NCBI GenBank assembly: GCA_031256955.1
Contig: JAIRPP010000012.1
Location: 1-64,000, forward strand
Direction: 5' to 3'
Source of the DNA: Candidatus Methanoplasma sp.
Lineage (GTDB): Archaea > Thermoplasmatota > Thermoplasmata > Methanomassiliicoccales > Methanomethylophilaceae
DNA: 64,000 nucleotides
The notes under the pieces were generated by a model, which saw nothing but the letters and a program-made list of their open reading frames with translations, searched no databases and was not told where the DNA came from. Positions 7,247-24,941 of this stretch are shown in pieces. The translations under genes were made by a program, and so were the position numbers. How positions within the stretch are numbered: position 1 is the first letter of the stretch; each line of letters begins with the position of its first letter.

Positions 7247-7975
7247 TCATGCGGCCTTCAGCAGCGACTTGGCCTCCTCGCTGCCCCGGGCCGCGGCCTT
7301 CTTCAGCCACTTCTCCGCGTTCGCCGCGCTCTTCGGCACGCCCTCGCCCGCCATGGACATCTTCCCCAGCAGGAGCATCGCCGGCGCATCCCCCTCCCCC
7401 GCCGCCTTCAAAAGCAGCTTCGCCGCCCTGTCCGCGCTCTTCCGGGTCCCCCTGCCCTCGAGGGCCATGGCCCCGAGCCTCGACATGGCCCCCGCATGCC
7501 CCGCCTCGGCGCACTCCGCGTATATCTCCGCGGCCGCCTCCTCGCTCGCGGGCACGCCCCTCCCCTCCTCGAGCATCACCCCCATGCGGTAGCGCGCGAT
7601 CAGGCTCCCGCCCTCAGCCGCCTTCCCGTACCACCTCATCGCCTCCGCCCAGTCCTGCGCCGTCCCCATCCCGTCCGAGTAGGCGTTGGCCAGGTTGAAC
7701 TGCGCCCTGACGTACCCCTGCTCCGCCGACTTCCGGTACATCTCGAACGCCTCCTCCGGGTTCCTGTTGGCGCCGTAACCGTGCGACAGCATGTAGCCGA
7801 GGTTGCATTGGCCCTCCGGGTCCCCCTGGGCGGCCGACAGGTCGAACCATATGAACGCGCGGGCAAGGTCCTTCTCCACCCCGCTCCCCTCGAAGTACAT
7901 GTACCCCAGGGCGTTCTGGGCGTTCGGGTCGCCGCCGGAGGCGGCCTCCAGGACCTCCTTGAACCCCGCGCTCAT
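7247..7975 (-). CDS. Sel1-repeat (TPR-like) protein
   Basis: The 242-aa protein consists almost entirely of Sel1-like repeats of about 36 residues, recognisable by A-x-x-x-LG-x-M/Y-x-x-G-x-G-V followed by A-x-x-W/L-x-x-A-A. Such repeats form helical solenoids that bind other proteins. There is no signal peptide or membrane segment. It sits 19 bp downstream of a longer Sel1 protein and ahead of gcvH, probably in one operon. The partner is unknown. Confidence 0.9.
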   Translation of the reverse strand: MSAGFKEVLEAASGGDPNAQNALGYMYFEGSGVEKDLARAFIWFDLSAAQGDPEGQCNLGYMLSHGYGANRNPEEAFEMYRKSAEQGYVRAQFNLANAYSDGMGTAQDWAEAMRWYGKAAEGGSLIARYRMGVMLEEGRGVPASEEAAAEIYAECAEAGHAGAMSRLGAMALEGRGTRKSADRAAKLLLKAAGEGDAPAMLLLGKMSMAGEGVPKSAANAEKWLKKAAARGSEEAKSLLKAA

Positions 7976-7994
7976 CCCCCCGTTCCGATAGGGG

Positions 7995-9458
7995 TCATCT
8001 CTGCCCCGCCCTCTTCAGCAGGGCCGCCGCGTCCCCGTCCCCCTGCCTGGCGGCCATGGTCAGGTACTTCTTCGCGATCGCGGGGTCCCTCTTGACGAAC
8101 TCCCCGTCGTGGTATATCTTCCCGACGTAGTACTGCCCGTCCCTGTCGCCGGAGTCCGCCGCCTCCCTCAGGCGGCGCATGCCCCCCTCCACGTCCTTCG
8201 AGGCCCCTATGCCGTTTATCATGAGCATCCCTATCAGGGACTTGGCCCCCGGGTGGCCCTGGTCCGCGGCCTGGTCCAGCCACATCGCCGCCTCCCTGGG
8301 GTCCTTCTTGACCCCCCTCCCCTCGTAGCACATGCACCCCAGGGCGTACTGGGCGTTGACCTCCCCCATCTCGGCGGCGTCCCTGAAGTGCCTCGCGGCC
8401 TCCGCGTCGTCCCTCTCGAAGTGGTATCCGTTGCCGTACATGCACCCCAGGGCGTACCTGGCGTACCCGTTGCAGGACTCAGCCGCCTTCAGGAACCATT
8501 TCGCCGCCGCGGCCTCGTCCCTCTCCAGGACGATCCCCTCCAGCTTCATGCCCGCGTAGTCCACCATCGCCTGCTGGCACCCCGCCCCGCATGCGGCCTC
8601 CAGCATCTCCTCCGCCCTGGACGGGTCCCTCTTGGCCCCGTGCCCGTGGAGGAGCATCATGCCCAGGTTGTAGCATGCCTCGGCATGGCCGGAGGCGGCC
8701 GCCTTCTCCAGGAGGGAGGCCGCCCTCCTGGCGTCGAAGTAGCCCCCCTTCTCGGTGAGGCATATCATCCCCAGCCTGTACGACGCCTCCGCGCTCCCGG
8801 CCTCCGAGGCCCTGAGGTACCATCTCTCCGCCTCCTTCAGATCCGCGGGGGCCCCGCACAGGCCCCCGTCGTGCATCTCGGCCAGATGGAGCATCGCCTC
8901 GGCGTGCCCGGACTCCGCGGCCGCCTTCAGCAGGGCCTCGGCCCGCTCGCGGTCCTTGGCGACGCCCTTGCCCATGAGGTGCATGAACCCGATCGCGTTC
9001 TGCGCCTCGGGGTCCCCCCTGTCGGCGCAGGCGGCGTACCACGACGCGGACTCGGCGTGGTCCTTGCGGGCGGGAGGCCTCCCCTCGCCGTATATCTTGA
9101 AAAGCTCGGCGCACGCGCCCGGGATCCCCTGCTCGCCCTTCAGCTTCAGGGCCATGAGCGGCGCGATCTTCGACTCGTCCCCGCCCGCCCTCTCGATCTC
9201 CCCGCGGGAGACGGACCCGCGCCTGCACCCGCCCGCTGCGGACAGCTCCATCAGCTCCGCCGCGGCGCGCCTGTCCATGGGGGCGCGCTCCCCCGAGTAC
9301 AGGAACAGGGCGCGGATGTACTGCGCCTCGGGGTCCCCGCCGTCGGAGAGCGCCTCTGCCAGCCTCGCCGCCTCTGCCAGGTCGCGCGACGGCGACGACG
9401 AATCCATCAGCCTGCGCAGCTCGCGCACCCCCCTGCCTGCGGAGTCCTCTCTTTGCAT
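7995..9458 (-). CDS. Sel1-repeat (TPR-like) protein, long form
   Basis: The 487-aa protein is a run of about a dozen Sel1-like repeats (for example ARYALGCMYGNGYHFERD and AQYALGCMCYEGRGVKKD) after a short N-terminal segment. No catalytic domain, signal peptide or membrane helix is visible, so it is probably a cytoplasmic scaffold. It starts a minus-strand cluster with a second Sel1 gene and gcvH. A third, divergent Sel1 gene starts at 9601, so all three may share one regulatory region. Confidence 0.9.
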   Translation of the reverse strand: MQREDSAGRGVRELRRLMDSSSPSRDLAEAARLAEALSDGGDPEAQYIRALFLYSGERAPMDRRAAAELMELSAAGGCRRGSVSRGEIERAGGDESKIAPLMALKLKGEQGIPGACAELFKIYGEGRPPARKDHAESASWYAACADRGDPEAQNAIGFMHLMGKGVAKDRERAEALLKAAAESGHAEAMLHLAEMHDGGLCGAPADLKEAERWYLRASEAGSAEASYRLGMICLTEKGGYFDARRAASLLEKAAASGHAEACYNLGMMLLHGHGAKRDPSRAEEMLEAACGAGCQQAMVDYAGMKLEGIVLERDEAAAAKWFLKAAESCNGYARYALGCMYGNGYHFERDDAEAARHFRDAAEMGEVNAQYALGCMCYEGRGVKKDPREAAMWLDQAADQGHPGAKSLIGMLMINGIGASKDVEGGMRRLREAADSGDRDGQYYVGKIYHDGEFVKRDPAIAKKYLTMAARQGDGDAAALLKRAGQR

Positions 9459-9558
9459 GCCAGCCCTGATGCCGAGCGCGTTTATTTCATTTAGCCCGCG
9501 GGGGCGGGCCTCCGCGCGCGGCGCGCGCCTCCGCGAGGCCTCCCCGGAGCCCTCCCCC

Positions 9559-9590
9559 CGACTATAGCCATATAAATAGAAGGCGACGTA
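9559..9590. promoter_or_regulatory. TATA-containing region between divergent Sel1 genes
   Basis: The 142 bp between the divergent Sel1 genes hold an AT-rich element, CCATATAAATAG, in an otherwise GC-rich stretch. It lies about 25 bp before the ATG at 9601 and fits a TATA box for near-leaderless transcription. Confidence 0.5.
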
Positions 9591-9600
9591 TCGAGACGCG

Positions 9601-10287
9601 ATGCGCGAGATCTCGGGGATTCCTTTCGAAAGCGGGCTCGACCCCCTGGAGTGGGCGAGGTTCGTGGTGAAGGCCCGCTCTGAGGAGAACTACGCCCAGG
9701 CCATGGACGTGCTCGAGGCGCAGGCGGCCGAAGGCGCCGCCGAGGCGGAGTTCCTCATGGGCCTCGTCTACGCCAGGGGGCAGGGGGTGCGCCGCAGCTT
9801 CGCGGCGGCCGCCACATGGTTCGAGAAGGCCGCGGACAAGGGGCACCTGGGCGCGATGTACTTCCTCGGGAAGATGTATCAGCGCGGATACGGGGTGCCG
9901 AAAGACAACGCCATGGCGGCCAGGCTCTACGAGGCCCCCGCCGAGGGAGGGGACGCCAGGGCGAGGTACCACCTGGGCGCGATGTGCCTGGAGGGCGCGG
10001 GGGTCCCCAGGAGCGCCGAGGCCGCCGCGGCGCATTTCGAGATCGCGGCCGCCGCCGGCCACTCCGAGGCCCAGTTCGTCCTGGGGCAGCTGTACAAGAT
10101 AGGCTGCGGGGTGGAGAGGGACGCGGACAGGGCGGTGGACCTGCTGGTCTCCGCCGCGGCCAACGGCCACAAGGGCGCGCGCCTGCTGCTGGGCGGCATG
10201 TACGAGACGGGGGACGGGGTCGACGCCGACCCCGACGAGGCGCGGCGGTGGTACCGCATGGCCTCCGAGGTCACTTCAGGCCCCTGA
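9601..10287 (+). CDS. Sel1-repeat (TPR-like) protein, short form
   Basis: The 228-aa protein has a short N-terminal segment followed by five or so Sel1-like repeats with motifs such as FLMGLVYARGQGV and YFLGKMYQRGYGV. It is divergent from the two other Sel1 genes and related to them in sequence, which suggests local duplication. Its 3' end overlaps the end of fhs by 17 bp on the opposite strand. It probably acts as a protein-binding scaffold; no partner can be named. Confidence 0.9.
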   Translation: MREISGIPFESGLDPLEWARFVVKARSEENYAQAMDVLEAQAAEGAAEAEFLMGLVYARGQGVRRSFAAAATWFEKAADKGHLGAMYFLGKMYQRGYGVPKDNAMAARLYEAPAEGGDARARYHLGAMCLEGAGVPRSAEAAAAHFEIAAAAGHSEAQFVLGQLYKIGCGVERDADRAVDLLVSAAANGHKGARLLLGGMYETGDGVDADPDEARRWYRMASEVTSGP

Positions 10288-12784: not shown

Positions 12785-12817
12785 TTTTTTATACCCGCCC
12801 GCGCATATGAGGGCGGG
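12785..12817 (+). promoter_or_regulatory. TATA box and inverted repeat before the Hsp70-vWA operon
   Basis: TTTTTTATAC forms a TATA-like element and is followed at once by a perfect inverted repeat CCCGCCC (12794-12800) and GGGCGGG (12811-12817) spaced by ten bases. The repeat covers the expected transcription start and ends just before the ATG at 12825. It could be an operator or an RNA hairpin controlling the chaperone operon. Upstream, the palindrome TACGAATTTCGTA at 12707-12719 and a half-like TACGAAATCC near 12758 may be further sites. Confidence 0.45.
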
Positions 12818-12824
12818 ATGCAAA

Positions 12825-14903
12825 ATGAGGGTCGGAATTGATCTCGGGACGACTTATTCGGCGGTGGCTAGATACGACCAGGCGAACTCAAGGCCTGTCG
12901 TCATAAACAACACGTTCGGCAAGGAGCTCACCCCGTCGGTGATATGCTTCCTGGACAACGGGGACGTGCTCGTGGGGGAGGACGCCAAGGACATGCAGGC
13001 GGGCGGGACCGGCGCGGCCGCGGCGGCGTTCAAGCGCGCGATGGGCGACCAGAGCTTCACGGTCGAGGCCGCGGGCGCGCAGTACTCCGCCGAAGACCTC
13101 TCGGCCATCCTGCTGAAGAAGCTGATATCCGACGCCGAGGCGGTCTCCGGGGAGAAGATCGACTCCGCCGTGATCACAGTCCCCGCGTATTTCAACGACT
13201 TCCAGCGCAAGGCGACGATCCGCGCCGGGGAGGCGTGCGGGGTCAAGGTCCTCAAGATCGTGAACGAGCCCACCGCGGCCGCCATATCCTACGGGTACAG
13301 CGGGAGCTCCGAGAAGACCATCCTGGTCTACGACCTGGGCGGGGGGACGTTCGACGTGACCATACTCGAGGCGAGGAAGGGCGGCATAGAGGTCAAGGGC
13401 ACCGACGGCAACCACCTCCTCGGCGGAAAGGACTGGGACGCGGCCGTCTCCAAGTTCGTGGCGGAGCAGTTCCTGGACGAGTTCGGCGTGGACCCCAGGG
13501 ACGACGAGTCCGCCAAGAACGAGCTGATCGTCGCATCCGAGAACTACAAGAAGGTGCTGTCCAGGAGCGACAGCGTCACGATACAGCTGAAGCACGACGG
13601 CAACGCGGGCAAGTACACCCTCACCCGCGAGGCGTTCGACGCGATGACCGAGCCCCTCCTCCTGGCGACCAGGGAGGTGTGCGCCGGCCTGATATCGAGC
13701 CTCGGCATGTCCTGGGGCGACATAGACGAGGTCCTGCTAGTAGGCGGGTCCACCAGGATGCCCCAGGTGGAGGCGTTCCTGAGGGAGCTGATTGGCGCGA
13801 GGATAGTGTCCAACTCCGACACCGACCTGGCCGTGGTGAAGGGCGCGGCGATAACCGCCGCGCTGTACGCCGGCGACAGCAAGAAGGTGAGGGCGTTCGA
13901 GATAAAGGACGTGACCGCCCACAGCCTGGGCGCGCTCTCCCTGAGGCGCGACGGCAAGGCGTACGTCAACGAGGTCATGATACCGAAGAACTCCAAGATC
14001 CCCGCGTCCGTGAGGAAGCCGTTCAGGCTGGGCGAGGGGAACATGACGGACGTCGTGGAGGTCTACATCCTGCAGGGGGAGAGCGCAGACCCCCGGGACT
14101 GCCACGTGCTCTCCAAGGTCTCCGCCACCGGCTTCGAGAACGACGGGGGCGGGACGGAGATCGAGATCGAGTACAGGTACAACGAGAACGGGGTGGTGGA
14201 CGTCGCCGCGTACCAGGGCGGCGAGCCCCTTATAATCGAGTCCGAGCCCGTCCCGGAGGACACGGGCTGGATGGGCGAGGCCCCCAGGCCCGCCGAGCGG
14301 GCGGTGGAGAAGAGCGTCGTCATATGCGTGGACATGTCCAGGAGCATGGACAAGATCGTCGACGGGGTCCGCCCGCTGGACGAGGTCAAGCGCGAGACCG
14401 CCGGGTTCGTGCGCGAGCTCGCCGCCGAGGGCGCCGTCTTCGGCCTGGTGGGGTTCGGGGACAAGGTCGGCGTGATAAGGGACATGACCTCCGACCAGGG
14501 ATCCATAATCGGCGCCCTGGAGAGCCTTAAGGTCAACGAGTACGGGCGCGGCACGGACGCCAGCCCCATAGGCACCGCCGCCGCCATGCTGTCCAGCCGG
14601 AGCGGGGTCAGGATGATCCTGATCCTGACCGACGGGAAGTGGGGGAAGAGGGACGCCGCGGTCGCGGAGGCCAGGGCATGCAGGAGCTCTGACATCGTCG
14701 TGATCGCCATGGGCTTCGGCAACGCGGACGTCTCCTTTCTAAAGCAGATAGCCACCGTGGACGAGGGCGCGATATTCACCACCATCAGGGGGATGGGGGA
14801 GAAGTTCAGCACCATAGCCACCGCCGTGAAGAAGGGGTCCATGGGCCTCCGCGAGGGCGGGTCCTCCGACGGCGGGAAGAAAGAGAGGATCAAGACCCGC
14901 TGA
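12825..14903 (+). CDS. Hsp70 (DnaK-like) fused to a C-terminal vWA domain
   Basis: The 692-aa protein begins with a complete Hsp70 ATPase domain: GIDLGTTYS at the N-terminus, VTVPAYFND, EPTAAAISYG and YDLGGGTFDVT, then VLLVGGSTRMP. A beta-sandwich substrate-binding domain follows to about residue 480. In place of the helical lid, the chain continues into a von Willebrand A domain (about 495-675) with an intact MIDAS: D503-x-S505-x-S507, then GTDASP and LTDGKWG. Hsp70-vWA fusions are not the standard DnaK. I placed the start at the ATG at 12825, directly before RVGIDLG. This is the first gene of a tight five-gene operon. A chaperone that recruits a metal-dependent adhesion partner is inferred. 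Confidence 0.92.
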   Translation: MRVGIDLGTTYSAVARYDQANSRPVVINNTFGKELTPSVICFLDNGDVLVGEDAKDMQAGGTGAAAAAFKRAMGDQSFTVEAAGAQYSAEDLSAILLKKLISDAEAVSGEKIDSAVITVPAYFNDFQRKATIRAGEACGVKVLKIVNEPTAAAISYGYSGSSEKTILVYDLGGGTFDVTILEARKGGIEVKGTDGNHLLGGKDWDAAVSKFVAEQFLDEFGVDPRDDESAKNELIVASENYKKVLSRSDSVTIQLKHDGNAGKYTLTREAFDAMTEPLLLATREVCAGLISSLGMSWGDIDEVLLVGGSTRMPQVEAFLRELIGARIVSNSDTDLAVVKGAAITAALYAGDSKKVRAFEIKDVTAHSLGALSLRRDGKAYVNEVMIPKNSKIPASVRKPFRLGEGNMTDVVEVYILQGESADPRDCHVLSKVSATGFENDGGGTEIEIEYRYNENGVVDVAAYQGGEPLIIESEPVPEDTGWMGEAPRPAERAVEKSVVICVDMSRSMDKIVDGVRPLDEVKRETAGFVRELAAEGAVFGLVGFGDKVGVIRDMTSDQGSIIGALESLKVNEYGRGTDASPIGTAAAMLSSRSGVRMILILTDGKWGKRDAAVAEARACRSSDIVVIAMGFGNADVSFLKQIATVDEGAIFTTIRGMGEKFSTIATAVKKGSMGLREGGSSDGGKKERIKTR

Positions 14904-14912
14904 GGGCGACGC

Positions 14913-17900
14913 ATGGCTAAAGACAGAGATAACTACTGCTACCTCATCGGGCTGAACCCGATGAAGGAATCCACCTACAACGCGGATTCCATAGAGAAGA
15001 AGATCGCCGCGAAGGAGGTCAAATGGAAGAAGTTCGCGGCGGACAAGCAGAACCCCGCGGAGAAGAGGTTCCAGGCGCAGCAGTGCTTCGATGCGGCGCC
15101 GGACATGCGCAAGGTCATGGCGGACCCCGCGCTCAGGGGCGAGGAGTTCGCGGACGCCAGGACGCTGCTCCGCGCCAAGGCGGCCAGGCTGCTGAAGGAC
15201 TGCATCACGCTCCACGACGGGACCAAGGTCCTGATCTCCGGGGCGGCCGAGAACCTCGCCAAGAAGATGCAGTGGGACGGGGTCGACAAGAGCGACCTGA
15301 TCTCCCTGTCCGGCATAAAGAAGACCGTGTCCAGCCCCCCCGTGAACGAGAGGGTCCTGGCCGCCTACAAGGGGCTGGCGGAGGTCCGGGCGTTCACGGT
15401 CGCGGAGATGCTGAACTCCCTGATAGACAGGCCCGCGCTCAGCCTCGGCATAGAGAGGCTCGACGAGAGGAGCGGGCCGGCGCAGATAAGGGCCGCGTTC
15501 GAGGCCTGCGAGAAGCGCGTGAAGACCGTCAAGCAGGGCGTCCTCCCCGACCAGGACTCCTACATACTGGCCATGAGGGCCGTGAAGGCGGCCCTGGCGT
15601 CGGACAAGGACCTCTCCGACCTGCTCACCTACGGCAGGTGCATGAAGGCGCTGGAGCCCGCCAAGGAGGCCATGGACACGGACTACGGCCAGCCGTTCTC
15701 CAGGGAATACCTGGACCGCCTGCTCCTCAAGGCCGTGGGCGGGTCCGGCAGGGACTACCACATGGCGCGGGCGATCCTGGAGGACTACTGCGTCAAGAAG
15801 AAGTACATAGCCAACTTCTCCGAGAGGGACAGCAGGCTGGCGGAATGCCCCGGGTGCGGCGCGCTGGTCGACGCCGGGGACGACGTCATGTGCTGCTCCG
15901 TGTGCGGGTGCGAGATAAAGACCAAGTGCCCCCAGTGCGGGAGGACGCAGGCGTCGTCCAACGGGTCCTGCGTCGGGTGCGGGTTCGACTTCAAAGGGGG
16001 GCTGGCCAAGGCCAGGGACCTGGAGAAGCGGTTCAGGTCCGCGGTCTCCCAGGGCAGGATAGAAGAGGCGGCGGAGCACCTCGCGGGGGTGAAGAGGGCG
16101 TACTCCACGTACCCCTCCCTGAAATCCATGGAGGGCGAGCTGAGGCCGCTGCAGGCCAGGTACTCCGAGGTCCTGAAGAGCGCGAACAGCCTCTACAGGC
16201 AGAAGAAGTACTTCGCCCTGGAGGCGCGCATAGACGCCGCCCTGGGCGACTTCCCTAAGATCACGTCCAACCCCGAGATCGGCAGGATGTACGACGAGGC
16301 CGCGTCGAAGGTGGGGGAGGCCGACCGGATATGCGAGAAGGCCGCCTCGCACGGGGACCCGCTCCCCCTCTACGTGTCCGCGGCGGAGATCTGCCCGGAC
16401 CACCCCGCGGCCATGTCCAAGATAAGGGAGAACCCCCCCGAATCGCCGTCCGACGCGACGGCGCAGCCCAGGGAGGGCAAGGTGCTGGTCAAATTCGCGG
16501 TGCCGGAGGAGAGGGCGGGGATGACGTTCTGCGTGTTCCGGGGCAGGGACGGCCTGCCCGCCGTGTCCGACGACACCGAGCCCCTGGCGGAGATCCCGGG
16601 GGGCGTGTACCTCGACAAGAGCCCCGACCCGGGCGTGGACCTGTACTACTCAGTGTACTCCAAGAGGTGGGGGGTCCTCTCCAGGGACGCGGCCCAGTTC
16701 GGCCCCGTCTCTGTGTGCCCCGAGGTGGAGGACGTGGCCATAGAGCCCGTCGAGGGCGGCCTCAGGCTGATATACGAGAAGCCCAGGGGGTGCAGCAGGG
16801 TCCGCATATGGAGGAAGGAGGGGACGTCCGCCGCCGGCAAGGGCGACGAGGTGGAGATCTCCCACGGCGGGCAGACCGTCATCGACGATCTGGGGCTCAA
16901 GGGCGGGGTCAGGTACCACTACCTGTTCGTCGCCGAATACCGCAAGGGGGGCAGGACCGAGCGCTCCATGGGGACCGAGTTCTCGCACGTCCCGCCCAGG
17001 GTCCCGGACCCCCCCAAGAGCGTGGAGATCAAATGGAACAAGTCGGACGGGTCGTTCACCGCCAGGTGGAAGAGCCCGGAGAGGGTCGTCCTCTACTCCT
17101 CCCCCAGGCGGGTGGAGCTGCGCGGGCGCGTGGTGAAGATGGAGGACCTGGGCGCGTGGATGTCCGAGATACCTCCCATAGAGTCCTACGACGACGGGGT
17201 CAGGTTCTCCGTGCCCGACGGCGCGGTGCAGTACGTGTACCCCATGATCCCCGCCGGCAAGGTGGCCGTCAGGGGCAAGGAGATAATGGTCGCCAACCTG
17301 AAGCCGTTCAGGGACGTGGAGAAGAGGGTCAGCGGAGGGGACTGCGACATAACCATGACGTGGCCCACGGGCGCGGAGTCCGCCGTGATCGCGGTGAAGG
17401 ACGCCCCCGCGTCGGGGCCGGACGACTTGGGCGCGGAGATGATCACCATAACCCGCGAGGCGTACAACATGGACCGCAGGGTCCGCGTGCCCATGGGGGG
17501 GTCCAAGAAGAGGGTGGCGACCATATACGCCGCCTACGACGTCTCCGGGGAGAAGATGTTCTCCCGCGGCATGTGCCTCGACCTGTACTCCGGGTCCAGC
17601 ACCAAGGTCAGGTACTCCATGTCCGCCGAGGGCGACGGCAGGGGGGCCAAGTTCACCATCTGCATCGACACGGACCGCTCGGTGGCGGAGCTGCCTCCGC
17701 TGTCCGCGGTGCGCGTGCAGGAGGGCATACCCCTCAGGAGGAGGGACGGCGAGGCGATATGGTCCTCCAACCGCCCCGTGGCGCTGAGCGGCGGGAAGGC
17801 CACGATAGCCTTCTCGTGCAAGCCGGGGACGGACCCGTCCAGGGTGAGGGTCTTCTTCGACGGCGAGGACAGCTACAACCTGTTCAAATTCATACACCCG

Positions 17901-17918
17901 GTTTTCAAGGAGAAGTGA
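14913..17918 (+). CDS. 1001-aa J-like / zinc-ribbon / beta-domain protein, function unknown
   Basis: I do not recognise a named family for the whole protein. The first ~75 residues have the spacing of a J domain (YLIGLNP, then I-x-K-K-I-x-x-K-x-x-K-W, later A-P-D-M-R-K-V-M-A-D-P), but the HPD tripeptide is absent. Cysteine pairs from C312 to about residue 356 form a multi-part zinc ribbon (CPGC, CSVCGC, CPQC, CVGC). A helical segment follows at about 365-500. From about 530 to the end there are fibronectin-III-like beta domains with phrases such as PDPPKSVEIKW. No signal peptide or membrane helix is visible, so the beta domains are probably cytoplasmic. It lies 9 bp after the Hsp70-vWA gene and 4 bp before the GTPase gene, and is probably the co-chaperone or adaptor of the system. 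Confidence 0.85.
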   Translation: MAKDRDNYCYLIGLNPMKESTYNADSIEKKIAAKEVKWKKFAADKQNPAEKRFQAQQCFDAAPDMRKVMADPALRGEEFADARTLLRAKAARLLKDCITLHDGTKVLISGAAENLAKKMQWDGVDKSDLISLSGIKKTVSSPPVNERVLAAYKGLAEVRAFTVAEMLNSLIDRPALSLGIERLDERSGPAQIRAAFEACEKRVKTVKQGVLPDQDSYILAMRAVKAALASDKDLSDLLTYGRCMKALEPAKEAMDTDYGQPFSREYLDRLLLKAVGGSGRDYHMARAILEDYCVKKKYIANFSERDSRLAECPGCGALVDAGDDVMCCSVCGCEIKTKCPQCGRTQASSNGSCVGCGFDFKGGLAKARDLEKRFRSAVSQGRIEEAAEHLAGVKRAYSTYPSLKSMEGELRPLQARYSEVLKSANSLYRQKKYFALEARIDAALGDFPKITSNPEIGRMYDEAASKVGEADRICEKAASHGDPLPLYVSAAEICPDHPAAMSKIRENPPESPSDATAQPREGKVLVKFAVPEERAGMTFCVFRGRDGLPAVSDDTEPLAEIPGGVYLDKSPDPGVDLYYSVYSKRWGVLSRDAAQFGPVSVCPEVEDVAIEPVEGGLRLIYEKPRGCSRVRIWRKEGTSAAGKGDEVEISHGGQTVIDDLGLKGGVRYHYLFVAEYRKGGRTERSMGTEFSHVPPRVPDPPKSVEIKWNKSDGSFTARWKSPERVVLYSSPRRVELRGRVVKMEDLGAWMSEIPPIESYDDGVRFSVPDGAVQYVYPMIPAGKVAVRGKEIMVANLKPFRDVEKRVSGGDCDITMTWPTGAESAVIAVKDAPASGPDDLGAEMITITREAYNMDRRVRVPMGGSKKRVATIYAAYDVSGEKMFSRGMCLDLYSGSSTKVRYSMSAEGDGRGAKFTICIDTDRSVAELPPLSAVRVQEGIPLRRRDGEAIWSSNRPVALSGGKATIAFSCKPGTDPSRVRVFFDGEDSYNLFKFIHPVFKEK

Positions 17919-17922
17919 TGGG

Positions 17923-19194
17923 ATGGCTAGGAGAAGCGAGGCGCGCGCCAAGAGGGAGGCGGGGGGCGGGTACACGTGCCCGTTCTGCTGCAAGACGGTG
18001 GACCTGAGGAACACGCACTACCAGTGCACCAACCCAGCGTGCGCTAAGATGTTCCTCCGGGGGCTGAGGGAGTCCGGGGCCAAGAGCGTCTACATGTCCA
18101 GGAACCTCGACGAGGAGGTGGACGTGGAGAACACGATCTTCCTGGGGAAGGACCCCGAGGGCCCGTCCCCGGTCACCACCAGGAACCACATCATGCGCGA
18201 CTCGTCCGGGATATGCGACATGTGCAAGAGGCCGGCGTACAGGAGGCTGTGCCCCGGGTGCCACAACCCGATACCCCAGGGCGCGGAGGAGGAGGGGAGC
18301 ACGGTGTTCGTGATCCTGGGGCCCAAGGGGGTGGGCAAGAGCCACTACATCGCCGTCCTGATCAACGAGCTGACCAAGTCGTTCTCGCCGGAGTTCGGGG
18401 CCACCATGAGCCCCGCCACCGACAGGACCACGCTGAGGTACCGCGAGTCCTACTACAAGCGCCTCTACGAGGAGGGCAGGAAGCTGGACCCCACCGCGTC
18501 CTACGAGCAGAGCCGCGACTCCCGGGAGCCCATGATATACTACCTGAGGTTCTTCGGCGGGGACTCCCCCCGCGTGTACACGCTGGCGTTCTTCGACACG
18601 GCGGGGGAGGACCTGGACTCCGCGGGCCGCATGATGAACCTGAGCCTCAACTCGTTCACGTCCATGGCCTCCGGGATAGTGTTCCTGGTGGACCCCCTGC
18701 AGATACCGTACATCAACTCCCGCATACGCATGGACAACAAGCCGCCGCAGGGGAAGGACGTGACCGACATCCTCAGCAACATATCGAACGCGATACGGGC
18801 GAACAGGTCCATGAGCCCGAGGGAGCCCATAGACATACCCCTGGCGGTCGTGCTCACCAAGAGCGACGTGCTCATGAAGGCCCCCGAGAACGAGGAGGAG
18901 GCCAACGTGCTGTTCGGCCCGGGGTCGTCCATACACATCGACAGGGAGAGGGGGAGGTACGACAAGACCAACTTCGAGCAGATAAGCGTGGAGATAGAGG
19001 AGTACATGAGGAGGGTCGCCTCGGGGGCGTTCGTGCAGATGGTGAAGGAGTTCGAGAGGCACTCCTACTTCGCCGTCTCCGCGCTCGGGAGCAACCCCAC
19101 CGGGCCGGTGCTCTCGCGGGCGATATCGCCCATGAGGGTGGAGGACCCGTTCATATGGCTCCTGAACTGCGACGCGGAGGGATCGGGCAGATGA
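17923..19194 (+). CDS. zinc-ribbon GTPase-like P-loop NTPase
   Basis: The 423-aa protein has two N-terminal zinc ribbons (C19, C22, C35, C40 and C98, C101, C110, C113). A GTPase-like domain follows: G1 GPKGVGKS at 133-140, G3 DTAGED from D225, and G4 TKSD at 312-315. The last motif supports guanine specificity. It resembles the double-GTPase-like families of TRAFAC-type NTPases often found with zinc ribbons; that family name is from memory. AAGGAG precedes its ATG, and its stop overlaps the grpE-like start (ATGA). It is probably the switch component of the chaperone operon. A membrane-anchored relative is encoded at 23409-24941. Confidence 0.85.
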   Translation: MARRSEARAKREAGGGYTCPFCCKTVDLRNTHYQCTNPACAKMFLRGLRESGAKSVYMSRNLDEEVDVENTIFLGKDPEGPSPVTTRNHIMRDSSGICDMCKRPAYRRLCPGCHNPIPQGAEEEGSTVFVILGPKGVGKSHYIAVLINELTKSFSPEFGATMSPATDRTTLRYRESYYKRLYEEGRKLDPTASYEQSRDSREPMIYYLRFFGGDSPRVYTLAFFDTAGEDLDSAGRMMNLSLNSFTSMASGIVFLVDPLQIPYINSRIRMDNKPPQGKDVTDILSNISNAIRANRSMSPREPIDIPLAVVLTKSDVLMKAPENEEEANVLFGPGSSIHIDRERGRYDKTNFEQISVEIEEYMRRVASGAFVQMVKEFERHSYFAVSALGSNPTGPVLSRAISPMRVEDPFIWLLNCDAEGSGR

Positions 19195-19952
19195 GCGAGA
19201 AGAGGATGAGCAAGACCGAGAAGCTGAGGCAGTTCCTGGTCACGGGATCGATAGAGATACCCGAGAGGGGGTTCGAGGAGGAGCCGGCGGAGATTCGCGC
19301 GGACGCCCCCTCGGAGGAGCCCGTCGTGGAGGACGTGGTCCCGTTCGAGGAGGAGCCGGCGGAGGCCCCCGCGGAGGCGGAGCCCGAGGCGGAGCCGGAG
19401 GCAGAGGCGGAGCCGCCGGCCCCCGAGCCCCCCGCCCCGGCCCCGGAGCCCGAGTGGCTGAGGGGCGCGCTGGAGTCCGTCAGGGCGGAGATCGAGGCGC
19501 GCACCACCACTAAGGAGCAGCTGAGGGAGTACGCGGCGGCCTTCGGCAAGAGGGACGCGGAAGCCGCGAACAGGGAGATGGCCGCGCTCCTGGAGCGGCT
19601 GTCCGCCATGAGGGAGGACTTCTCCAAGCTCTGCAGGGACATGAGGGAGAAGATAGACAGGTTCTCCGCGGACGAGGTCCTCGAATCGTTCGGGGCGTAC
19701 GCGGTGGACATGGAGAACATGCTCGCTGACTGCGGGGTGCGCGTCGGCCCGTTCCCCTACGACAGGCTGAGCGTGAGGCACCAGAGGATGGTCGGGATCG
19801 TGCCGACCGGAGACAAGTCGATGAACGGCGCGATCGCGGAGAGGGTGTCGGACGGGTACGAGTACCTGGGCCGCGTCCTTCTCAAGGAGAAGGTGAACGT
19901 ATACAGGTTCACGGGGACGAGTGGGGAAGAGACAGACAGAGGAGATGAATGA
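19191..19952 (+). CDS. grpE: GrpE-like nucleotide exchange factor
   Basis: The 253-aa protein has a long acidic and proline-rich N-terminal region (about 25-95), a coiled-coil helix (about 98-180) and a C-terminal beta domain. The end (HQRMVGIVPT...GAIAERVSDGYEYLGRVLLKEKVNVYRF) has the shape of the GrpE head domain, which opens the Hsp70 nucleotide cleft. Sequence is divergent from bacterial GrpE, so assignment rests partly on operon position. It overlaps the GTPase gene by 4 bp and ends 1 bp before the ATG of the second Hsp70. It may serve both Hsp70 proteins of this operon. Confidence 0.75.
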   Translation: MSEKRMSKTEKLRQFLVTGSIEIPERGFEEEPAEIRADAPSEEPVVEDVVPFEEEPAEAPAEAEPEAEPEAEAEPPAPEPPAPAPEPEWLRGALESVRAEIEARTTTKEQLREYAAAFGKRDAEAANREMAALLERLSAMREDFSKLCRDMREKIDRFSADEVLESFGAYAVDMENMLADCGVRVGPFPYDRLSVRHQRMVGIVPTGDKSMNGAIAERVSDGYEYLGRVLLKEKVNVYRFTGTSGEETDRGDE

Positions 19953-19953
19953 G

Positions 19954-21546
19954 ATGAGCAAGGAATACGCTATAGGAATAGACTTGGGAACGACGTACTC
20001 GTGCATGGCCTACCTCGACGAAGAGGGGAGCCCTGTGGTCGAGAAGAACTTCGAGCAGGAGGACACGACGCCGTCGGTCATACTGTTCAACGAGAACGGG
20101 GAGATCATAGTCGGGTCGCCCGCCAAGGACATGGCGATGATGTACTCCATGGAGAGGGTCGTCACCGCCATAAAGAGGCAGATGGGGCAGACCGGCCCGG
20201 AGGTCGACGTCGAGATCGACGGGGCGGTGTACACGCCGGTGTCCCTGTCCGCCGCGATCCTCAAGAAGATGATCAACGACTTCAACGACAACCACGGCAC
20301 GGACATCAAGAAGGCGGTCATAACATGCCCCGCATACTTCGGCCAGCTGGAGAGGGACGCCACGAAGAACGCCGGCATGATCGCGGGGCTGGAGGAGGTC
20401 ACCATAATCAACGAGCCCACCGCGGCCGCCATATCCTTCGGGCTGGGCGGCGGCGTCGAGGGCAGGAAGAGGGTGCTGGTCTACGACCTGGGCGGGGGGA
20501 CGTTCGACGTCACCGTCCTCGAGATCGAGGGCAACAGCTTCACCGCGGTCGCCACCGACGGGGAGAGGCTCCTCGGGGGGAAGGACTGGGACGCGGAGCT
20601 CATAAAGATCATCAAGAGGAAGATCATGGACGAGTACGGCGTGGACGAGAGCGAGTTCGACTCCGACGACGACGTCAAGCAGAACCTCATCCTCGACTCG
20701 GAGACCATAAAGAAGAGGCTGTCCTCCGCCGAATCCACCAAGGGCACGCTGACCGTGGGCGGGAGGAAGGCCGTGTACACCGTCACCCGCGAGGAGTTCG
20801 AGGCGGAGACCCGCTCCCTGATGGACGCCACGCTGGAGAAGATGGACAGCGCCCTCTCGTCCAAGGGCTTCTCCATGGGCGACATAGACGAGGTCATCCT
20901 CGTCGGCGGGTCCTCCAGGATGCCGCAGGTCAAGGCCGGGATATCCGCGAAGTACCCGTCCGCCAATCTGAGGCTGTTCGACCCCGACCAGTCCATAGCC
21001 AAGGGCGCCGCCATATTCGCCGGGACCCACAACTGGAACCTGAGGGAGGACATGGAGGACGCCGAGAAGAAGGGCGAGGAGTACGTCCCCGCGGCGGGCG
21101 AGATAGTGGTGCACAACGTGCTCAGCCAGACCTTCGGCATAAAGGCGGTGTACGACGACACGTCCGCGGAGATGATCTCCAACATCATCTTCAGGAACGA
21201 GAAGCTGCCCATATCCTCGATCAAGACGTACTACCCCGTGGACGACGGCCAGTCCTCCATAATGGTGGAGATCTACGAGAGCGCGGCGAACAACGTCGAG
21301 GGCGAGAGGAGGATCGAGCTCGTGGAGGGGTGCCCGGTGGGCGACTTCGAGATGACGCTCCCCGAGGGCGTCACGAAGAACACCCCCATCGCGGTGAAGT
21401 TCACCGCGACGGACGAGGGGATACTGATAGCCTCCGCGGACTGCCTCGGCAGCCACAAGGAGTACCAGCTGCAGAACAGGCTGCAGATGTCCGACTCCGA
21501 GATACAGAAGTCCCGCGGGCTGGTGGAGAAGGTCCAGAGGGCCTGA
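19954..21546 (+). CDS. dnaK: Hsp70 (DnaK-like) chaperone lacking the helical lid
   Basis: The 530-aa protein has a full Hsp70 ATPase domain (IGIDLGTTYS, EPTAAAISFG, YDLGGGTFDVT, ILVGGSSRMPQV) and a beta-sandwich substrate domain. Bacterial and archaeal DnaK usually reach about 600-640 residues; this one stops about 20 residues after the SDSEIQK motif that starts the lid, so the alpha-helical lid is missing. The ATG at 19954 is preferred over an upstream GTG because AGGAG lies just before it and the preceding gene stops at 19952. Substrate capture without a lid should be weak and fast, or be completed by the zinc-ribbon proteins of the same operon. Confidence 0.92.
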   Translation: MSKEYAIGIDLGTTYSCMAYLDEEGSPVVEKNFEQEDTTPSVILFNENGEIIVGSPAKDMAMMYSMERVVTAIKRQMGQTGPEVDVEIDGAVYTPVSLSAAILKKMINDFNDNHGTDIKKAVITCPAYFGQLERDATKNAGMIAGLEEVTIINEPTAAAISFGLGGGVEGRKRVLVYDLGGGTFDVTVLEIEGNSFTAVATDGERLLGGKDWDAELIKIIKRKIMDEYGVDESEFDSDDDVKQNLILDSETIKKRLSSAESTKGTLTVGGRKAVYTVTREEFEAETRSLMDATLEKMDSALSSKGFSMGDIDEVILVGGSSRMPQVKAGISAKYPSANLRLFDPDQSIAKGAAIFAGTHNWNLREDMEDAEKKGEEYVPAAGEIVVHNVLSQTFGIKAVYDDTSAEMISNIIFRNEKLPISSIKTYYPVDDGQSSIMVEIYESAANNVEGERRIELVEGCPVGDFEMTLPEGVTKNTPIAVKFTATDEGILIASADCLGSHKEYQLQNRLQMSDSEIQKSRGLVEKVQRA

Positions 21547-22384: not shown

Positions 22385-23425
22385 ATGAAGCTCCCGCTCT
22401 TCAAGAAGAAGCCCGCGCCCCCCGTCCTTAAGGCGCAGGGGCTGGGGATGCACTGGGACGCGGAGGACCCGTTCCTGTTCGCATCGCACCACAGCGACGA
22501 CTATCCCGCCGGCAACGCCCAGCAGGCGCCCCCGCTGAGGCAGATAAGCGGGAGGAACCTCGGTAGGGACTATCAGAAGCTGTTCGGGTTCAGGATGTAC
22601 CACGGGAAGGTCGTGCCCGGGTTCCCGCTGCACTCGCACTGGGGCTACGAGACCGTGACCGTCCCCGAGAAGGGGTTCGTGGACCATTTCGATTCCCTCG
22701 GGAACTGCGGGAGGTTCGGGTTCGGGGACGTGCAGTGGGTCTCCGCCGGGAGCCTGTACAGCCACGACGAGATGTACCCCCTCGCGTTCGACGACCGCCC
22801 CAACCCCAACGACATAACGCAGATAATGATCGACCTGCCGTCGTCGTCCAAGGGGTCCGCCCCGGCGGTGAGCACGGTGTGGGCGGAGGACGTGCCCGTC
22901 GTCGAGCTGGAGGGGTGCGAGGTGAAGGTGGTCGCCGGGAGCTTCGGCGGGGCGTCCGCCGCCGCCCCCCACCCGGGGTCGTGGGCGGCCGACCCGGCGC
23001 ACGGGGTCAGGATCCTAAGGATCGCGATGCGCCCGGGCGCGTCCCTGGACGTGGACGGGGCCGCGCCCGGGGCCCGGAGGAACCTCTACTTCGTGTCCGG
23101 CGCGGACGCGTCCATAGGGGGGGAGGCGTACGGGAGCGGGCAGAGGCTGAAGATGGACGGCTCCGCGTTCCGCGTGGAGAACGGCGGGGCGGAATCCGCG
23201 ATGTGGCTCCTCGAGGGCGTCCCCATAGGGGAGAGGAGAGCCGCGTTCGGCCCGGTCGCCCTCGGGACCGACAGGGAGGTCCTGGACGCGATGAACGAGA
23301 TCCGCAGGAGGGAGCTCGCGGACTGGCCCTGGGGGCTGGTGGACCGGACGCAGCCCAAGGGGGCGGAGAGGTTCCTGGCGCGCGCAGACGGGTCGACGGA
23401 GCGCCCCGTCAGAAGATCCTCTTGA
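22385..23425 (+). CDS. pirin-family cupin protein
   Basis: The 346-aa protein is a bicupin of the pirin family. The metal ligands are in place: H83 and H85 in PLHSHWGYET, and H127 and E129 in AGSLYSHDEM. Pirins bind iron; some oxidise quercetin-like compounds and others act as regulatory cofactors, so the substrate is open. It ends 17 bp inside the opposing GTPase gene. Confidence 0.85.
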   Translation: MKLPLFKKKPAPPVLKAQGLGMHWDAEDPFLFASHHSDDYPAGNAQQAPPLRQISGRNLGRDYQKLFGFRMYHGKVVPGFPLHSHWGYETVTVPEKGFVDHFDSLGNCGRFGFGDVQWVSAGSLYSHDEMYPLAFDDRPNPNDITQIMIDLPSSSKGSAPAVSTVWAEDVPVVELEGCEVKVVAGSFGGASAAAPHPGSWAADPAHGVRILRIAMRPGASLDVDGAAPGARRNLYFVSGADASIGGEAYGSGQRLKMDGSAFRVENGGAESAMWLLEGVPIGERRAAFGPVALGTDREVLDAMNEIRRRELADWPWGLVDRTQPKGAERFLARADGSTERPVRRSS

Positions 23426-24941
23426 CGTCCTCGTCGTTCTCCGAGAGGATCCACGCCAGGGGCTCGGCGGCGTTCCGCCCGTCGCCCAGGGACGAGACCT
23501 TGAAGAACCTCACGTTCTCGAAGGCGGATCTCGCGATCTTCACGAAGTCTCCCTGCCCGTGCCTGGCCAGGAACGCCTCGGCGCCTTCGGCCGCCGCGGC
23601 GGACGAGCGCGGGTCGTCCATCTTGGTCAGGACGACCGCGAACGGGACCGTGGACCTGACGGACGGGCCGTACCCGTTTATCTCCGTGTACATGTGGTAG
23701 AACGACTCCATGACGGAGACCGGGGTCGGCTTGGAGCCCTTCGCGGGGGACTGGGAGCTGTGCACCGCCACCACCGACGCGGGGTCTATGGCGAAGATTA
23801 TCCCGTCGTTGTACTTGTAGTACTCCTCGAAGAGCACCTTGTCCCTGTCGGGCTCGAACTCCGAGCCGGATATGTCGTTGAACATTATCTCCTTCTCCGG
23901 GAAGTCCCTGGACCTCAGGAACAGGAACTCGGAGTCCAGCTCCCCGGGCGCGGTGGGGGCGACGCGCCCCTTGGCCCCCCATGCCCGCGGGGACAGCCCC
24001 GGCGACGCGAACTCCGCCATGACCCCCTTGGACTTGGCGGCCTCGCACAGGGATTCGGCGGAGGACAGCATGAGGGTGGTCTTCCCGGAATCCCTGGCTC
24101 CCACCAGGGACACCACCAGCGGCTTCGCCTCGTGCGTCACGACGCCGGAGCCGCAGTGCGGGCACACCATGGACAGGGCCCCCCTGCCCCCGAGGTCGTT
24201 GGTGGCGGGGACGGAGTGCCCGTTGTTGCACGTGTGGATCTTGGCGCCGTGCGGGCCCGGCACGGGGTAGCCGAACACCAGCCCGCACGAGCATTTGACG
24301 CGGGGCTGGTAGAAGTTGCGCTTGCACTTGGGGCACACGGCGTAGTGGGTGAGCGAATCGTACCTCGCCCTGTCCCTCTTGGACGCGGACCCGATCTTCA
24401 GAGACATGATCGCCCATAGGATCAGGAACGCGATCAGGAGCGCCAGGTCCGCGATCAGCGCGAAGGGGGCGATGAAGGGGAGCATGGCGATCGGTATCGC
24501 GACAGGCGCCTTCTTGAACCCCCAGAACAGGGGGATGGAGTTCCAAGGCATGGCGAGGCAGCGGGCCAGGGCCATGGGGCGGTGCGTGAACAGGTATTCC
24601 CGGGGATCGGTGTCCCCGCCCTTCACGTCCCTCGACGGGGACGACGCGAAGCCCATGGCGGACAGCATGAACCCCACGGACAGGAAGAGGGTCGCAGACA
24701 GTCCCGCGCCCGTGGGCAGCGCGCCGTACAGCGCGCCCAGCGAACCCAGGTATCCGAAGTCGGTCTGGACCACCCAGTCTCCCGCGCCGAAGATCGCGGC
24801 TATGTTGATCACGCTCACGCAGACGCCGCCCGCGGACTCCCCGCCGAACAGGTCGGCGGCGGTCAGAAGGAGCGACGACAAACAATACATCGCGGCGGCA
24901 CCGGCCGCCGTTCCCATCAATGCTTTGTTCGTCCCGTTCAT
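23409..24941 (-). CDS. membrane-anchored zinc-ribbon GTPase-like protein
   Basis: The 510-aa protein has several hydrophobic segments in its first 180 residues (clearest at about 10-30, 80-97 and 145-178). Cysteine pairs C203/C206, C217/C219 and C260/C263 form zinc ribbons. A GTPase-like domain follows with G1 GARDSGKT at 281-288, G3 DISG from D356 and G4 TKMD at 439-442. The order zinc ribbon then GTPase matches the soluble protein at 17923, and both share a similar domain style, so they are probably distant relatives. It lies 2 kb from the chaperone operon on the opposite strand. A membrane receptor for that system is a reasonable but untested idea. Confidence 0.82.
   Translation of the reverse strand: MNGTNKALMGTAAGAAAMYCLSSLLLTAADLFGGESAGGVCVSVINIAAIFGAGDWVVQTDFGYLGSLGALYGALPTGAGLSATLFLSVGFMLSAMGFASSPSRDVKGGDTDPREYLFTHRPMALARCLAMPWNSIPLFWGFKKAPVAIPIAMLPFIAPFALIADLALLIAFLILWAIMSLKIGSASKRDRARYDSLTHYAVCPKCKRNFYQPRVKCSCGLVFGYPVPGPHGAKIHTCNNGHSVPATNDLGGRGALSMVCPHCGSGVVTHEAKPLVVSLVGARDSGKTTLMLSSAESLCEAAKSKGVMAEFASPGLSPRAWGAKGRVAPTAPGELDSEFLFLRSRDFPEKEIMFNDISGSEFEPDRDKVLFEEYYKYNDGIIFAIDPASVVAVHSSQSPAKGSKPTPVSVMESFYHMYTEINGYGPSVRSTVPFAVVLTKMDDPRSSAAAAEGAEAFLARHGQGDFVKIARSAFENVRFFKVSSLGDGRNAAEPLAWILSENDEDVKRIF

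What the first reader, a model, noticed from the sequence alone, without database searches (positions are those of the whole stretch)
12825..21546. Five-gene Hsp70-vWA / J-like / GTPase / GrpE / Hsp70 operon
The order is Hsp70-vWA fusion, 1001-aa J-like zinc-ribbon protein, zinc-ribbon GTPase, GrpE-like factor and a lidless Hsp70. Spacings are 9 bp or less and one junction overlaps by 4 bp. This is not the usual dnaKJ-grpE set. It joins two ATP-switched chaperones with a GTP switch and a metal-dependent adhesion domain, suggesting one machine. Related GTPase and vWA families have been placed by comparative genomics in defence or signalling systems, but this combination is not one I can name.
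Basis: partly seen in the sequence, partly recalled or inferred. Interest (0 to 1): 0.9.

Follow-up and report, generated by a model that had tools for sequence, protein, structure and literature searches.

The report
Archaeal Hsp70–GTPase chaperone operon
A gut methanogen carries, besides its ordinary heat-shock chaperones, a fixed five-gene operon that ties two unusual Hsp70 chaperones to a GTP switch; it is an archaeal, stripped-down relative of a predicted bacterial 'double-GTPase' conflict system, but it evolves slowly and is inherited like a household machine rather than a defence island.

Summary
The five genes are real, on one strand and tightly packed (9 bp, 4 bp, 4-bp overlap, about 1 bp). 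The order A-B-C-(D)-E recurs in 23 relatives' loci from five genera of one family (Methanoplasma and kin). Kaur et al. (eLife 2020) described bacterial GAP1-N2-type DO-GTPase systems whose 'HSP70 theme' holds HSP70, GrpE, a reduced second HSP70 and a DnaJ/TPR-FNIII protein. Here the 1001-aa protein has an HPD-less J-like N-terminus, a double zinc ribbon and about five FN3 domains. The defining GAP1 gene is absent from this genome and genus, but sits inside a diverged copy of the same gene set in seven genomes of a sister genus, linking the two directly. New features: an Hsp70 whose lid is replaced by a MIDAS-intact vWA domain, loss of GAP1, slow evolution, fixed chromosomal place. Best reading: a GTP-gated, membrane-recruited Hsp70 machine of household or envelope-stress type. 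New variant of a known (predicted, untested) kind.

The parts
12785..12793 (+). TATA-box-like element (TTTTTTATA), about 32 bp upstream of the ATG; fits a leaderless or short-leader archaeal transcript
   Evidence: sequence read directly; inference, not tested
12825..14903 (+). Gene A: Hsp70-vWA fusion, 692 aa
   Evidence: Pfam HSP70 6e-111 and VWA 8e-15; orthologues 61-69% in the genus
12825..13889 (+). A: nucleotide-binding domain; phosphate-1, K70-, E171- and T199-equivalents present in all 26 orthologues and in the genome's own DnaK
13890..14234 (+). A: linker and substrate-binding beta domain (about residues 356-470)
   Evidence: phmmer alignment to solved DnaK up to residue 466
14316..14777 (+). 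A: vWA domain (residues 498-651) in place of the helical lid; MIDAS DxSxS, T and D conserved in 25-26 of 26 orthologues
14913..17918 (+). Gene B: 1001-aa scaffold; homologous along its length only in the same family among 390 genomes of the phylum
14913..15200 (+). B: J-like, HPD-less N-terminal helical domain (residues 1-96)
   Evidence: profile-profile E about 1e-3; predicted helices 8-12, 24-43, 49-60, 62-70; weak
15834..15986 (+). B: double zinc ribbon (residues 308-358), eight Cys invariant
   Evidence: DZR in 19 of 19 members, best 6.7e-7
15990..16436 (+). B: helical, TPR-like stretch (residues 360-508)
   Evidence: AlphaFold2 model; weak TPR matches
16437..17915 (+). B: about five FN3-like beta sandwiches (residues 509-1001)
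   Evidence: AlphaFold2 pLDDT 86; Foldseek best matches are fibronectin type-III fragments, 1.3e-10
17923..19194 (+). Gene C: soluble zinc-ribbon DO-GTPase2
   Evidence: Pfam PF19993 1.2e-7; P-loop GxxGxGKS, DT(A/S)G and TKxD conserved, ribbon Cys conserved
19191..19952 (+). Gene D: GrpE-like factor; ATGA overlap with C
19954..21546 (+). Gene E: second Hsp70 (NBD + SBD-beta, no lid); alternative ATG at 19945
23409..24941 (-). Second DO-GTPase2: membrane-anchored (hydrophobic segments near residues 40-58, 81-99, 160-178; four in relatives), zinc ribbons, G domain at 23451-24116
   Evidence: Pfam PF19993 5.2e-9; co-occurrence with C p = 4e-20

Best explanation
Identity (about 0.85): a GAP1-less archaeal derivative of the GAP1-N2-type DO-GTPase systems, HSP70 theme. 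Mechanism (about 0.4): the soluble zinc-ribbon GTPase C and the membrane GTPase (23409-24941) act as a GTP-dependent switch pair at the membrane; B is the scaffold, which couples to C through its zinc ribbon or helical part, docks Hsp70 through its J-like head and reaches clients with its FN3 arm; A and E are ATP-driven Hsp70 motors reset by the GrpE-like D; in A the MIDAS vWA replaces the lid, so a metal-dependent clamp or ligand grip takes over what the lid does in DnaK. The output is recruitment of a dedicated Hsp70 machine to a membrane-proximal client (assembly or protection of envelope proteins), a household or envelope-stress role, not a killing switch. Shown: gene content, order, intact active-site residues, co-inheritance. 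Inferred: every contact, the membrane recruitment and the client.
For: DO-GTPase2 hits for both GTPases; order A-B-C-(D)-E in 23 relatives' loci; the TM-GTPase co-occurs with C (49 both, 18 C only, 3 TM only, 77 neither; p 4e-20), including genomes where it lies far away; diverged copies in seven genomes add GAP1 to the same set; A and E are separate clades that each split into type 1 and type 2, so the set was inherited as a unit; ATPase, MIDAS and GTPase residues conserved; strong purifying selection, dN/dS about 0.03-0.16 in the pairs tested, and FN3-1 to FN3-4 are the most conserved parts of B; the published template is HSP70 + GrpE + reduced HSP70 + DnaJ/TPR-FNIII with DO-GTPases; a review predicts membrane-stress roles for DO-GTPases.
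Against: No wet data for any member; no complex was modelled. The J-like domain lacks HPD, so it may not stimulate ATPase. One genus (g14) lacks D, and g14 and most of g7 lack the membrane GTPase, so neither is essential to the core. dS is near saturation in the dN/dS estimates.
Confidence: 0.45

Rival explanations
1. It is an active conflict (antiviral or anti-element) system, as Kaur et al. proposed for the bacterial relatives: FN3 or vWA parts sense an invader, the GTPases set a threshold, and Hsp70s assemble into a superstructure that stops growth.
For: Family resemblance to predicted conflict systems; genus g9 holds second, GAP1-bearing copies in only some genomes, the patchy pattern expected of defence.
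Against: Type 1 is present in nearly all genomes of genera g1, g6, g7 and g9, keeps its downstream neighbours in four genera, evolves slowly with conserved FN3 domains, has no recognised effector beside it, lacks GAP1 and matches no PADLOC model.
Confidence: 0.25
2. A second general-purpose Hsp70 stress operon: paralogous dnaK/grpE genes that merely travel with a GTPase, with no dedicated coupling.
For: A, D and E are bona fide Hsp70/GrpE folds.
Against: Both Hsp70s lack the lid and are far from the genome's DnaK; B and C are kept in every locus while D is not; the same combination recurs in diverged copies with GAP1.
Confidence: 0.12
3. A dedicated assembly factor for one complex (as RavA-ViaA or CoxD-CoxE are with MoxR-vWA pairs), with the client encoded elsewhere.
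For: vWA partners of ATPase chaperones act this way in characterised MoxR-vWA systems; core-gene behaviour here.
Against: No candidate client is consistently in the operon; the metal P-type ATPase upstream in g6, g7 and g14 is absent next to the operon in g1 and g9.
Confidence: 0.18

Closest known systems
GAP1-N2-type DO-GTPase (GTPase-centric) systems, HSP70/GrpE theme (Kaur, Burroughs, Iyer, Aravind, eLife 2020, PMC7159879)
   Same: DO-GTPase2 with N-terminal zinc ribbons; a second DO-GTPase with N-terminal TM helices; HSP70, GrpE and a reduced second HSP70; an FNIII-repeat protein with a J-like/helical N-terminus
   Different: No GAP1 in this genome, its genus or any type-1 locus; an Hsp70 fused to vWA, not mentioned in that paper's text; FN3 domains slowly evolving; fixed chromosomal place; archaeal
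Type-2 copies in genus g9 (L066/L094, L068, L095-L098)
   Same: All six proteins homologous, including Hsp70-vWA
   Different: GAP1 between the GTPase and Hsp70-vWA; membrane GTPase adjacent; different gene order and strands; found in 7 of 147 genomes
Tubulin-theme GAP1-N2 system on a Rhodococcus opacus megaplasmid (L082)
   Same: DO-GTPase2 (31% identity over 73% of C) and GAP1-N2/GAP1-M
   Different: Tubulin_2 where this operon has Hsp70s; bacterial, plasmid-borne
Canonical grpE-dnaK-dnaJ (same genome, G000:C2)
   Same: Hsp70 and GrpE folds
   Different: Lidded DnaK, DnaJ with HPD, no GTPase, vWA or FN3
CoCoNuT type III-A (eLife 2024, PMC11090510)
   Same: Hsp70-like units and vWA proteins in one operon
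   Different: McrB-type GTPase/McrC core and RNases; no PADLOC match here

Membership tests
DO-GTPase2 (Pfam PF19993) | Profile match above the curated cut-off with intact G motifs | tested here: met
   C 32.1 bits and the TM-GTPase 36.5 bits against a cut-off of 27; P-loop, DT(A/S)G, TKxD
GAP1-N2-type DO-GTPase system | GAP1 protein (GAP1-N2/M) encoded with the GTPase | tested here: not met
   Absent from G000, all its genus and all type-1 loci; present only in 7 g9 genomes. G000 is 88% complete, but single-contig 99% relatives lack it too
GAP1-N2-type DO-GTPase system | FNIII-repeat component | tested here: met
   Structure-based; sequence profile barely sees it
GAP1-N2-type DO-GTPase system | Paralogous GTPase pair, one with N-terminal TM helices | tested here: met
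   hydropathy gives three strong segments here and four in relatives
HSP70 theme of that system | HSP70, GrpE and a reduced second HSP70 | tested here: met
HSP70 theme of that system | DnaJ domain (or TPR) fused to the FNIII protein | tested here: inconclusive
   J-like, no HPD, E about 1e-3; no Pfam hit
HSP70 theme of that system | Mobile neighbourhood, rapidly evolving FNIII, variable effectors | tested here: not met
   Near-universal in its genera and syntenic; FN3-1 to FN3-4 76-80% identical in the genus, above the rest of B
Canonical dnaK-dnaJ-grpE chaperone set | Lidded DnaK and HPD-bearing DnaJ | tested here: not met
   E and A end after SBD-beta; B lacks HPD
Known anti-phage system (PADLOC) | Match to any system model | tested here: not met
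   No match for seven proteins at E 0.01; the library dates from 2023
Anti-phage function | Protection in an assay | not testable with these tools
   needs an experiment

The most novel reading that the evidence does not exclude
A distinct class of Hsp70 in which a MIDAS vWA domain has replaced the helical lid as a metal-dependent client clamp, run by a DO-GTPase pair at the membrane: a conflict-system relative domesticated into a core protein-homeostasis machine of gut methanogens after losing GAP1.
Probability: 0.25. Interest if true: 0.8.

Novelty: new variant of a known kind. Interest (0 to 1): 0.55.

Why it matters
DO-GTPase systems are known only from prediction, and I found no experimental paper on them in the library searched. 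Here the same parts behave like core genes, which allows a direct test of whether they are defence devices or chaperone machines. The Hsp70-vWA fusion asks how an Hsp70 works when its lid is exchanged for a metal-dependent adhesion domain, and GAP1-bearing and GAP1-less forms in sister genera give a natural comparison for what GAP1 does.

Tried and rejected
Chance adjacency: rejected by conserved order in 23 relatives' loci. Only chaperone locus of the genome: rejected. GAP1 elsewhere in the genome: no hit at E 1 for GAP1-M, one sub-threshold hit (E 0.12) for GAP1-N2. Wider spread of B in the phylum: hits outside the family cover only the zinc-ribbon region and are treated as non-specific. Plasmid search with B, and with GAP1 from L068: no match. 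Phage search with the C-terminal part of A: no match. PDB sequence search with B: nothing above chance. CoCoNuT membership: considered from the papers, no supporting hit. Sel1 genes as a sixth part: Sel1 repeats are abundant in these genomes (44-93 repeat matches per genome), so it is left as a lead.

Full report
OBSERVATION. The window is contig 8 of a 1.56-Mb, 88%-complete genome of the Candidatus Methanoplasma group; the closest named relatives found are termite-gut Methanoplasma MAGs. Pfam supports Hsp70+vWA for A, DO-GTPase2 for C and Hsp70 for E; B has only a weak zinc-ribbon signal, and D a sub-threshold GrpE signal. D is nevertheless a GrpE: relatives score 3.4e-10 and 5.5e-6, and its model (pLDDT 78) has GrpE chains as its first twelve PDB matches.

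ANATOMY. A aligns to solved DnaK from residue 3 to 466, that is through the substrate-binding beta domain; the helical lid is missing and a vWA domain (498-651) follows. Across 26 orthologues the Hsp70 phosphate-1, Lys70-, Glu171- and Thr199-equivalents and the vWA MIDAS residues are conserved. E has the same ATPase residues, an SBD-beta and no lid. B was modelled from 19 orthologues (mean pLDDT 86, pTM 0.41, so domain folds are usable and their arrangement is not): helical N-terminus, zinc ribbons, helical stretch, then about five beta sandwiches whose best PDB matches are fibronectin type-III fragments. The N-terminus resembles a J domain in register and length but lacks HPD; I call it J-like and do not claim function. 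C has two sets of ribbon cysteines, a P-loop, DT(A/S)G and TKxD.

A MISSED PART. At 23409-24941 on the minus strand, behind a pseudouridine synthase and a pirin, lies a second DO-GTPase2 with N-terminal hydrophobic segments and zinc ribbons. It co-occurs with C in 49 of 147 genomes of the order, with 18 C-only, 3 TM-only and 77 neither (Fisher p 4e-20; genomes are related, so the p-value overstates independence). In genus g9 it lies far from the operon in the finished genomes yet is kept in nearly all, so the link is not mere proximity. It is absent from g14 and most of g7.

CONSERVATION. In 23 relatives' loci from genera g1, g6, g7, g9 and g14 the order A-B-C-(D)-E on one strand is kept; D is missing in the three g14 loci. 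C is found in 67 of 147 genomes of the order, all in one family, and in every genome at least 90% complete in g1, g6, g7 and g9. Full-length B was found only in that family among 390 genomes of the phylum. The downstream pseudouridine synthase and pirin are shared by g1, g6, g7 and g14. In g1, dN/dS in sample pairs is about 0.03-0.16, with dS near saturation, and FN3-1 to FN3-4 are the best conserved parts of B (76-80%).

LINK TO A KNOWN KIND. Kaur et al. (PMC7159879) defined DO-GTPase systems with GAP1; the GAP1-N2 type has zinc-ribbon GTPases, a TM-bearing second GTPase and an FNIII protein, and one theme adds HSP70, GrpE, a second HSP70 without its peptide-binding domain and a DnaJ- or TPR-FNIII fusion. 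The resemblance was tested. GAP1 is absent here and from all but seven genomes of the order. In the type-2 clusters that I read, GAP1 lies between a diverged C and a diverged Hsp70-vWA, with B, D, E and membrane GTPases around it. A bacterial relative of C on a Rhodococcus plasmid sits beside GAP1-N2 and Tubulin_2. In a tree of Hsp70s, A and E form separate clades and each splits into type 1 and type 2; C splits likewise, with weaker support. The gene set has therefore been inherited as a unit since before type 1 and type 2 diverged.

MECHANISM. Inference: two GTPases form a membrane switch; B connects it to two ATP-driven Hsp70s, reset by D; the vWA replaces the lid of one of them. The core-gene pattern argues for a household or envelope-stress task rather than an arms race; a review of phage-shock proteins cites DO-GTPases as predicted membrane-stress factors. 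Defence remains possible (0.25), above all for the patchy type-2 copies.

VERDICT. A new variant of a known, predicted and experimentally untested kind: archaeal, GAP1-less in its main form, with an Hsp70-vWA fusion that the paper's text does not mention (its supplement was not readable here). The canonical chaperone set elsewhere shows it is an addition, not a replacement.

Noticed in passing
window 7247-10287: Three Sel1-repeat proteins upstream. A Sel1 gene also lies upstream of gene A, within about 0.2-3.5 kb, in most g6, g7, g9 and g14 loci although the genes between differ; Sel1 genes are abundant in these genomes, so the link is unproven.
   Followed up: partly
L055 15682-18157; L069 15177-17609; L056 and L073 upstream of A: An ArsR-type regulator and/or a metal P-type-ATPase-like gene beside the operon in g6, g7 and g14 but not next to it in g1 and g9 (read from translations only).
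   Followed up: no
L057 and L058 (G044): One genome holds two type-1 operons, one in the usual place and one elsewhere.
   Followed up: no
L066/L094 (G079:C54): GAP1 appears split between two frames (GAP1-N2 in a 150-aa frame, GAP1-M in a 654-aa frame): decay, a real split or an assembly error.
   Followed up: no
L068 and L097: Type-2 clusters with two tandem membrane GTPases.
   Followed up: no
L082 18270-20133: TerC/TerD-like genes a few kb from the Rhodococcus DO-GTPase/GAP1/tubulin genes (read from sequence only).
   Followed up: no
L119, L120 (G359, G295): Weak GAP1-N2 matches (about 6e-5) in another family of the same class.
   Followed up: no
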